From positions 1 to 37,356 of IMG/VR virus record IMGVR_UViG_3300024265_000136: 37,356 bases of DNA. One strand, 5' to 3'. The stretch comes from a virus. This document shows positions 1,540 through 15,319 of the stretch, one piece after another (the stretch's first letter is position 1; each line of letters opens with the position of its first letter). The notes under the pieces were generated by a model that did not search any database, was not told the DNA's origin, and saw nothing but the letters and a program-made list of their open reading frames with translations. Position numbers and translations under genes: made by a program.

Positions 1540-1650
1540 TTCATATTTACCATAATAACCTCCGTTGTTATTGTTCCGATATCCATTTTAAAAGTAAATG
1601 GCAGGCTGATCGGAATTCAGCTTTTCAGGCGCTAACCCTATCCATTTACC

Positions 1651-12096: not shown

Positions 12097-12125
12097 TTGA
12101 CAAAGTATTATTATTATATTAATAT
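12097..12125 (+). promoter_or_regulatory. Sigma70-type promoter for the tRNA-like/early operon
   Basis: TTGACA (12097-12102), a 17-nt spacer and TAATAT (12120-12125). The -10 lies in the palindrome ATATTAATAT, and CTAATTAG follows a few bases on. The upstream segment AAAAAAGTGC is nearly identical to that of the 32672 promoter. The predicted +1 is about 12132, 57 nt before the tRNA-like gene. Confidence 0.7.
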
Positions 12126-12188: not shown

Positions 12189-12287
12189 AGCAAGGTGGTG
12201 GAATGGTAGACACACGGCGGTACATAGGAGTAATTGCCTAATCGCTGTCCGGGACGCCGATTGCAGGTTCAAATCCTGCCCTTGTTA
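12189..12287 (+). tRNA. tRNA-Leu-like gene with aberrant anticodon region
   Basis: The outer parts are a good class II tRNA. The acceptor stem is AGCAAGG/CCTTGTT plus discriminator A. The Leu-type D arm is GTG/CAC with GG in the loop, and the T arm is GCAGG-TTCAAAT-CCTGC. A short variable arm TGTC-CGG-GACG can be drawn. The segment between D and T arms is 48 nt instead of 30-34, and no 5+7+5 anticodon arm fits. The best stem, GCGGT/ATCGC, closes a 19-nt loop. The alternative stem CGGCG/CGCCG closes 35 nt. It could be a degenerate tRNA, an integration-site remnant or a repurposed tRNA-like RNA. No CCA is encoded. Confidence 0.55.
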
Positions 12288-12567: not shown

Positions 12568-12861
12568 ATGATTAAAACAGAAGATTTTATCAGGCCATGC
12601 GGCTGTCGTTCGGTTGATGAATGTTTGCATAATGTAACATGCGAAATTCAGGCATTAAACATTTTAATAGATGACGCAAAGAAAGCGATGTTGATAAAAC
12701 TAAGCAAGAAATATGTGCAAGGTTGGGGTGGATGGGATGATCCGGAAAATCTTCCTATTTTAAAAAACAAATTAGTTGAACATATTATGAAAGACTTCTC
12801 CCCGGATAACATGGTAGACATAATGAACCTTGCTGCCATGATTAGGAATCAACTGATATGA
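12568..12861 (+). CDS. Hypothetical protein with CGC...C cysteine cluster
   Basis: This 97-residue protein begins directly after the RHH stop. The N-terminus has PCGCRSVDECLHNVTC, four cysteines that could bind a metal; the rest is helical with a tryptophan-rich turn (VQGWGGWDDPENLP). The stop overlaps the Lar-like ATG (ATGA), so the two are translationally coupled. No family recognised. Confidence 0.6.
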   Translation: MIKTEDFIRPCGCRSVDECLHNVTCEIQALNILIDDAKKAMLIKLSKKYVQGWGGWDDPENLPILKNKLVEHIMKDFSPDNMVDIMNLAAMIRNQLI

Positions 12862-14644: not shown

Positions 14645-15075
14645 GTAATGCAACAGCTCGGCGAGGTTCCTCCTTGTCCCAGCCGAGCGATTTAATATGC
14701 CGATATAGCTCAATTGGTAGAGCAGTAGTTCGGGTTCAATTCCTGATATCGGCTAAACCCTTCGGGGATAAATTGTGTTGGCTTTTATGGTGCAAACGAA
14801 AGCCAACAAGTTGCGGACACGCACAATTTCTGCAACCGAGCCAGTGGAAGGCTGGCACTTTACAGAGTATTCCATTTTTGAAGCCCGTGCCGAGGACAGC
14901 GATGGGGTAAGGGTGGGTGATCATAAATTATAGGCCCACAGAGCACGGGCAATTTAAAGGTAAAATCCCGGTTATGATCTTTGATCCTCTGTCCGGGTAA
15001 GATAATAAAGGGGCGGGCGTTACAACTCTCCCAGGTTTTGCGCCTGCTCCGATTTAAAACAAGGAATGGAGGAGA
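14645..15075 (+). ncRNA. Hairpin-rich non-coding region, candidate structured RNA
   Basis: The 430 nt between two well-marked genes hold no gene with a ribosome site. Perfect or near-perfect stems are: GCTCGGC/GCCGAGC (14656 and 14682); the tRNA-like fold (14699-14754); CCC-TTCG-GGG (14758); an outer stem AAATTGTG/CACAATTT (14770 and 14822) enclosing GTTGGCTTT/AAAGCCAAC (14777 and 14799) and TGCG-GACA-CGCA; GCCAG/CTGGC (14840 and 14852); GCCCGTGC/GCACGGGC (14883 and 14943); and CCCGG/CCGGG. The three-way junction is especially regular. It may be one large ncRNA processed next to the tRNA-like element. I cannot match it to a known class. Confidence 0.5.
14699..14754 (+). tRNA. tRNA-Thr-like gene lacking the whole anticodon arm
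   Basis: The acceptor stem GCCGATA/TATCGGC is fully paired with discriminator T54. The D arm GCTC-AATTGGTA-GAGC and T arm TCGGG-TTCAATT-CCTGA are canonical. Between base 26 (A14724) and the T stem only GTAGT remains, so the anticodon stem-loop and most of the variable loop are absent and the RNA is 56 nt. The outer sequence resembles bacterial tRNA-Thr. A precise 15-20 nt deletion from a normal tRNA explains it. It cannot decode. Whether it is expressed, aminoacylated or merely decayed is unknown. Confidence 0.65.
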
Positions 15076-15079
15076 AATT

Positions 15080-15319
15080 ATGATCCGATATATGAGTATA
15101 ATTGGCAGCAGTGGCAAAGACGTTGATAAACAAATAGCGCATCTAATAGAAGAACCAATATGGTTTTTAGACAAAAAACCGCTTAATGTACCATACATTA
15201 AACTCGACATTAAAATCGTCGGCAAAGAAGAACGGTTTAAAGAGCAGAGGATAAAACGCCCGCAGCCGCGGACGATTAGCAGTGTGATCAAAAAAATATT
15301 ATTAGGAGGATGGAAGTAA
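15080..15319 (+). CDS. Hypothetical small protein
   Basis: The 79 residues start at 15080 behind GGAGGAG; earlier in-frame codons lie in the structured RNA. An N-terminal strand-helix unit (RYMSIIGSSGKDVDKQIAHLIEEP) is followed by IPW/FLDK and a basic tail (KEQRIKRPQPRTISSVIKKIL). No family recognised. It overlaps the next start by one base (TAATG). Confidence 0.55.
   Translation: MIRYMSIIGSSGKDVDKQIAHLIEEPIWFLDKKPLNVPYIKLDIKIVGKEERFKEQRIKRPQPRTISSVIKKILLGGWK

What the first reader, a model, noticed from the sequence alone, without database searches (positions are those of the whole stretch)
14699..14754. A tRNA gene with the anticodon arm cleanly missing
Seen: complete acceptor stem, canonical D arm and T arm, and only 5 nt where the anticodon arm and variable loop should be. 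All other tertiary positions (GG in the D loop, TTC in the T loop) are intact, so this is not a generally decayed sequence. Inference: it cannot decode, but the acceptor/T-arm domain could still be bound by processing enzymes, EF-Tu or a synthetase that ignores the anticodon. It could also serve as a decoy resistant to host anticodon nucleases or as a guide for RNA processing.
Basis: partly seen in the sequence, partly recalled or inferred. Interest (0 to 1): 0.75.

Follow-up and report, generated by a model that had tools for sequence, protein, structure and literature searches.

The report
Phage tRNA mimic lacking anticodon arm
A phage carries a 56-base tRNA look-alike that has lost exactly the part that reads the genetic code. 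Many unrelated phages carry the same kind of cut-down tRNA, and these probably act as markers where long viral transcripts are cut rather than as translators.

Summary
Window 14699-14754 (+) is a tRNA with a perfect 7-bp acceptor stem, intact D and T arms, and 6 nt (A26 plus nt 44-48) where about 23 would be expected. Rfam scores it as tRNA at 46.7 bits; ARAGORN misses it. It looks like a Thr-type phage tRNA from which nt 27-43 were removed.

It is not an oddity of one phage. IMG/VR and bacterial genomes hold about 88 distinct elements of this shape. Their acceptor stems vary freely but stay paired (228 double changes), the tertiary 15-48 pair is kept, and linker length peaks sharply at 8-9 nt. 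They sit in intergenic gaps of phage operons, and in three cases directly 3' of GOLLD, ROOL or drum RNA. The window's second tRNA-like gene, and all four in its distant relatives, also have abnormal anticodon domains.

Best explanation: a non-decoding tRNA mimic whose acceptor/T-arm/elbow is a processing signal (RNase P/Z type), i.e. transcript punctuation. No RNA data were available.

The window copy lacks the 2-4 nt cap of the main class and scores no better with that class's model than ordinary tRNAs do. No close relative is known, so a dead deletion remains possible for this copy.

The parts
14699..14754 (+). anticodon-arm-less tRNA-like element: acceptor 14699-14705/14747-14753, D arm 14708-14723, linker 14724-14729, T arm 14730-14746, discriminator T14754
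14655..14690 (+). GC-rich hairpin (GCTCGGC...GCCGAGC) between the stop of a small ORF and the tRNA-like element
   Evidence: fold; sequence
14755..15066 (+). structured intergenic stretch directly 3' of the element (z -2.4 against shuffles); no Rfam family at its gathering score
14510..14644 (+). upstream co-directional small ORF (44 aa, Cys-rich), ends 54 nt before the element
15080..15319 (+). next co-directional ORF (79 aa) with GGAGGAGA-type ribosome site
12189..12287 (+). second tRNA-like element of the same operon: acceptor, D-like arm and T arm kept, 5-bp anticodon stem with a 35-nt insert in place of the loop; ends 28 nt before ATG 12316
12097..12125 (+). promoter-like site TTGACA-17-TAATAT ahead of the early operon (consensus match only)

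Best explanation
The element is a phage-encoded, non-decoding tRNA mimic. The acceptor/T-arm stack and the D/T elbow are kept because host tRNA maturation enzymes (RNase P at the 5' side; RNase Z or 3' exonucleases at the 3' side) recognise them. The anticodon domain is dispensable and has been removed. In the early-operon transcript it would act as punctuation: cutting at 14699 would give the upstream mRNA a 3' end just after a GC-rich hairpin, and cutting after 14754 would release the structured stretch and the downstream genes. SHOWN: the structure, the wide phage class of such elements, covariation in their stems, their intergenic position, adjacency of some to GOLLD/ROOL/drum RNAs, and the non-decoding shape of the tRNA-like genes found in the window and its distant relatives. 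INFERRED: transcription, cleavage, and any benefit to the phage.
For: Class: the first pattern scans found 58 distinct armless elements with at least 6/7 acceptor pairs, 67 with the bacterial genomes, and 21 more with another D loop. On 48 aligned copies with the window left out, 97.8% of cells pair, with 228 double changes and covariation 0.69 against 0.15 in shuffles. The Levitt pair 15-48 is kept: 54 G-C plus 3 A-U of 58, 16 of 17 in the second set. Linkers peak at 8-9 nt in both sets; shorter ones are rare although searched without truncation. Context: L024 starts 3 nt after GOLLD, L027 abuts the 3' end of ROOL, L199 lies 54 nt after drum. At the GOLLD 3' site related Streptococcus phages carry a full tRNA-Phe, an armless form, or a 113-nt form with the same acceptor/T arm. 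Acceptor+T-arm-only minihelices also occur; the reversed-sequence null gave none. A distant relative has tRNA-like elements without a normal anticodon loop, one 12 nt after a stop and 28 nt before the next ATG. Downstream gene co-directional in 46 of 60.
Against: No transcript ends or cleavage data. A co-directional intergenic position is also usual for ordinary phage tRNAs, and short-arm tRNAs give similar counts, so context alone does not prove punctuation. The window copy lacks the 2-4 nt cap of the main class and scores 51.6 bits with a model built without it, the same as ordinary full tRNAs (52-55) and below the class (72-76). No orthologous copy was found in distant relatives.
Confidence: 0.5

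Rival explanations
1. Dead deletion product: a recent microhomology-mediated deletion removed nt 27-43 of a phage Thr tRNA and nothing has used it since.
For: The 5' 27 nt and the last 8 nt match a full phage tRNA-Thr(UGU)-like gene (L369). The cut is exact, with no cap; no copies were found in relatives; the score is tRNA-like rather than class-like.
Against: All stems are intact, including the A15-U48 pair, and the phage's other tRNA-like gene is non-decoding too. The capped class as a whole clearly is not dead.
Confidence: 0.3
2. Assembly artefact: the assembler collapsed or dropped the anticodon arm of a repeated tRNA.
For: Such artefacts exist: ten bacterial genome loci look armless only because the assembly puts NN in the arm.
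Against: No N in the window; the tRNA is the only one of its kind in the record. Armless copies occur in isolate genomes such as Streptococcus porci, Acinetobacter and Lactobacillus xujianguonis.
Confidence: 0.07
3. Aminoacylated or trans-acting mimic: charged by an anticodon-blind synthetase or binding a tRNA-elbow protein such as EF-Tu, to feed a non-ribosomal use or act as a decoy.
For: The elbow and acceptor are intact; all 7 elements with G3:U70 also have A73, which is alanine identity.
Against: Acceptor and discriminator sequences are otherwise unconstrained, and the 1-72 pair is broken in 12 of 48. The window copy has C3-G70 and U73. No adjacent aminoacyl-transfer gene was recognised.
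Confidence: 0.1
4. Attachment-site fragment (attP or attL/R) left by integration into a tRNA gene.
For: Phage records often carry tRNA pieces for this reason; the 5' half resembles a tRNA-Thr gene found near the ends of many prophage records.
Against: Both acceptor strands and the D and T arms are present with an internal gap, not a 3' half; none of the 20 larger proteins scanned is an integrase.
Confidence: 0.03

Closest known systems
Canonical bacterial/phage tRNA (Rfam RF00005), Thr type
   Same: Acceptor, D and T arms, T8, GG/TTC elbow contacts, Levitt pair
   Different: No anticodon arm, so no decoding
Pseudo-tRNA or tRNA next to or inside GOLLD; tRNA islands near ROOL (PMC12286853, PMC6582537)
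   Same: tRNA-like elements beside phage structured RNAs; here armless forms sit at the 3' ends of GOLLD and ROOL
   Different: No armless element was described in the passages read; the window has no Rfam-recognised large RNA
Metazoan mitochondrial armless tRNAs (PMC7609411)
   Same: Reduced tRNAs that keep a subset of arms
   Different: Those lose D and/or T arms and keep the anticodon; here the reverse
tmRNA tRNA-like domain
   Same: Acceptor and T arm without a canonical anticodon arm (own knowledge)
   Different: No mRNA part or tag; the D arm is full and contiguous; no Rfam tmRNA match in the window
RNase P minimal substrates (acceptor/T-stem hairpins) and mitochondrial tRNA punctuation (own knowledge)
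   Same: Acceptor/T stack as the recognised unit, placed between genes
   Different: Processing not shown here

Membership tests
tRNA (RF00005) | score above the curated cut-off over the whole model | tested here: met
   46.7 bits against 29, model 1-71
tRNA (RF00005) | anticodon arm with a 7-nt anticodon loop | tested here: not met
   nt 27-43 absent
Capped armless phage tRNA-like class defined here | acceptor 7 bp, D arm, T arm, no anticodon arm, Levitt pair 15-48 | tested here: met
Capped armless phage tRNA-like class defined here | 8-10 nt linker with a 26-44 Watson-Crick pair and a 2-4 nt cap | tested here: not met
   Linker AGTAGT is 6 nt. In the class 48 of 55 pair with 8-9 nt linkers; only 9 of 17 in the independent set
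Capped armless phage tRNA-like class defined here | scores with the class model clearly above ordinary tRNAs | tested here: not met
   51.6 bits held out; ordinary tRNAs 52-55; class 72-76
GOLLD/ROOL/drum-associated element | known large phage RNA directly 5' | tested here: not met
   No such Rfam family near it even at E 10
Processing signal | cleavage by RNase P at the 5' side and 3' maturation | not testable with these tools
   no RNA data
tmRNA | tmRNA model match | tested here: not met
attP/tRNA fragment | 3' half of a tRNA beside an integrase gene | tested here: not met
   Internal gap rather than a 3' half; no integrase among the 20 proteins scanned

The most novel reading that the evidence does not exclude
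Tailed phages have repeatedly converted tRNA genes into non-decoding 'punctuation RNAs': the acceptor/T/elbow domain is kept under selection while the anticodon domain is deleted, capped by a 2-4 nt turn on a 26-44 pair, or replaced by long inserts. They mark processing sites in operons and define the 3' ends of large phage RNAs such as GOLLD, ROOL and drum; the window copy is the exact-excision form.
Probability: 0.4. Interest if true: 0.82.

Novelty: new variant of a known kind. Interest (0 to 1): 0.62.

Why it matters
Why phages keep tRNA genes is usually discussed in terms of codon supply or nuclease evasion. A widespread set of phage tRNAs that cannot decode, yet keep covarying stems and elbow contacts, would show that some phage tRNAs are kept for their shape. 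It would offer a testable mechanism for how ends of phage transcripts and of GOLLD/ROOL-type RNAs are made, and it warns that tRNA finders miss or mislabel these genes.

Tried and rejected
No match of the region in 50,697 phage records. TerL and RecE relatives are 42-58% identical and carry no armless copy at the same place. Eight literature searches (anticodon-armless tRNAs; phage tRNA-like RNAs near terminase, late operons or GOLLD/ROOL) turned up no phage case, but most subscription papers are not held. Early idea that the window copy belongs to the CTTGGGTC class: rejected by the held-out model. 26-44 pair as a universal rule: strong in the first set, weak in the second. General Ala charging: rejected. 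Ten apparent bacterial copies discarded as NN assembly gaps. The L007/L019/L023/L048 group was discarded because its acceptor pairs only 2/7. A marginal abiF RNA match 5' of the armless copy in L022 (39.9 bits, cut-off 37) was not used as evidence.

Full report
WHAT IS THERE. Window 14699-14754 (+) reads as a tRNA with a perfect 7-bp acceptor stem, D arm, T arm and discriminator U, and only AGTAGT between the D and T stems. cmscan places it in RF00005 at 46.7 bits with the anticodon arm as the single deletion. ARAGORN does not report it. It folds better than shuffles (z -3.5). Compared with a full phage tRNA of Thr(UGU) type (L369), the first 27 nt and the last 8 nt are identical, so exact loss of nt 27-43 from such a gene is the simplest origin (inference).

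SURROUNDINGS. The record is a 37-kb virus contig with portal, terminase and other structural genes on the minus strand and an early region on the plus strand with a Lar-like protein, a DNA methyltransferase, RecE-like exonuclease, primase and helicases. The element lies between small co-directional ORFs, about 9 nt after a GC-rich hairpin and before a 312-nt structured intergenic stretch (z -2.4; no Rfam family at its gathering score). A second tRNA-like gene, 12189-12287, lies in the leader of the same operon and ends 28 nt before its first ATG. It keeps acceptor and T arm but has a 35-nt insert in place of the anticodon loop.

A WIDE CLASS. Pattern scans of IMG/VR for AGCTC D arms followed after a short gap by GGTTC T arms returned many loci. 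After requiring at least 6/7 acceptor and 4/5 T-stem pairs, 58 distinct sequences remain, 67 with bacterial genomes, and a scan with another D loop gave 21 more. The acceptor filter inflates the share of paired cells, but it cannot by itself create compensatory changes of this number. On 48 aligned copies, window excluded, there are 228 double changes and a covariation score of 0.69 against 0.15 in shuffles and at most 0.14 in slid versions. The tertiary 15-48 pair is G-C or A-U in 57 of 58 and G-C in 16 of 17 of the second set. Linker length peaks at 8-9 nt in both sets. Shorter linkers are rare although the scan for them was not truncated. The scan for longer ones was truncated, so the upper edge is not measured.

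HOW THE ARM IS REPLACED. In the first set nt 26 and nt 44 form a Watson-Crick pair in 33 of 37 (8-nt linkers; 0 of 2000 shuffles) and 15 of 18 (9-nt; p 0.0005), and no other linker pair stands out. The commonest form, C-UU-G, resembles a CUUG turn (own knowledge). The second set shows this only weakly (9 of 17). The window copy and L177 have no cap at all. With a model built without it, the window copy scores like ordinary tRNAs. It therefore shares the architecture but is not shown to belong to the capped class.

CONTEXT OF THE CLASS. Elements are mostly intergenic, with the downstream gene on the same strand in 46 of 60, often terminase, head or tail genes. About 60 armless loci were scanned with Rfam. 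Of the phage RNA families GOLLD, ROOL and drum, one match each was found at an armless locus, each on the same strand directly 5' of the armless element: 3 nt, abutting, and 54 nt away. A tmRNA-like match about 330 nt 5' (L017) and a marginal abiF match (L022) were the only others. At the GOLLD 3' site, Streptococcus phage Javan565 has a full tRNA-Phe, a Streptococcus porci prophage an armless form, and Javan577/584 a 113-nt form with an extra T arm, all with nearly the same acceptor and T arm. In LYGO9 a neighbouring tRNA is reduced to acceptor plus T arm. Acceptor/T-arm minihelices occur elsewhere, and the reversed-sequence null gave none.

RELATIVES OF THE WINDOW PHAGE. Named relatives are only about 31% identical in TerL; viral contigs reach 42-58% in TerL and 44-51% in RecE. 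None carries this copy. Where tRNA-like genes exist (G003, G014), all four have abnormal anticodon domains: two with 5-bp stems and 47-60 nt inserts, one with an AAAA tetraloop, and one without a recognisable arm. In G014 one lies 12 nt after a stop and 28 nt before the next ATG. With the window's two, six of six are non-decoding in shape; two of the six match the tRNA model only weakly (29.1 and 24.5 bits).

MECHANISM. What is kept (acceptor/T stack, elbow) is what RNase P, RNase Z and CCA-adding enzymes use; what is lost is what the ribosome and most synthetases use (established knowledge). Together with the operon position and the GOLLD/ROOL/drum adjacency, this favours transcript punctuation. 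Cleavage itself is inferred. For the window copy, a dead deletion is the main rival (about 0.3).

KNOWN OR NEW. GOLLD and ROOL are known to lie near tRNA islands (PMC12286853), and a pseudo-tRNA inside GOLLD has been noted (PMC6582537). A review of non-canonical tRNAs mentions neither phages nor viruses (PMC7609411). No description of anticodon-armless phage tRNAs was found in the papers searched, which exclude most subscription journals.

Noticed in passing
window 12189-12287 (+): Second tRNA-like gene with a 5-bp anticodon stem (CGGCG/CGCCG) and a 35-nt insert instead of the loop, in the leader of the early operon 28 nt before ATG 12316.
   Followed up: partly
G003:C1:45856-45967 and 45257-45380 (L227, L228): Two tRNA-like genes in a terminase relative, each with a 5-bp anticodon stem and a 47-60 nt structured insert replacing the anticodon loop.
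   Followed up: partly
L422:3758-3831 and 12747-12814: Two tRNA-like elements of a RecE relative, one without a recognisable anticodon arm and one with an AAAA tetraloop, close to co-directional genes.
   Followed up: partly
L224:2138-2183 (Streptococcus phage LYGO9): 46-nt minihelix of acceptor plus T arm only; the homologous copy in phiGBSVK-E1 (L388:1113-1191) is 79 nt with an AGCTC D arm.
   Followed up: yes
L177:60-890: Noncoding array with a 125-nt long-armed tRNA-like element, a cap-less armless one at 303-359, further T-arm remnants, and a direct repeat (CCTGAGTAAACAGTAAATCAAGC) flanking the armless element.
   Followed up: no
L236, L233, L259, L243, L258, L254, L265, L239, L264, L250: Bacterial genome contigs with 'NN' inside tRNA anticodon arms: assembly gaps that mimic armless tRNAs.
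   Followed up: yes
window 14755-15066 (+): 312-nt structured intergenic stretch with many hairpins and no Rfam match; possible unknown phage RNA.
   Followed up: partly
window 1583-1648 (-): Rfam int-alpA RNA match (43 bits, cut-off 35.8) between structural genes, not beside a recognised integrase.
   Followed up: no
L199:9964-10067 (-): drum RNA 54 nt upstream of an armless tRNA-like element.
   Followed up: partly
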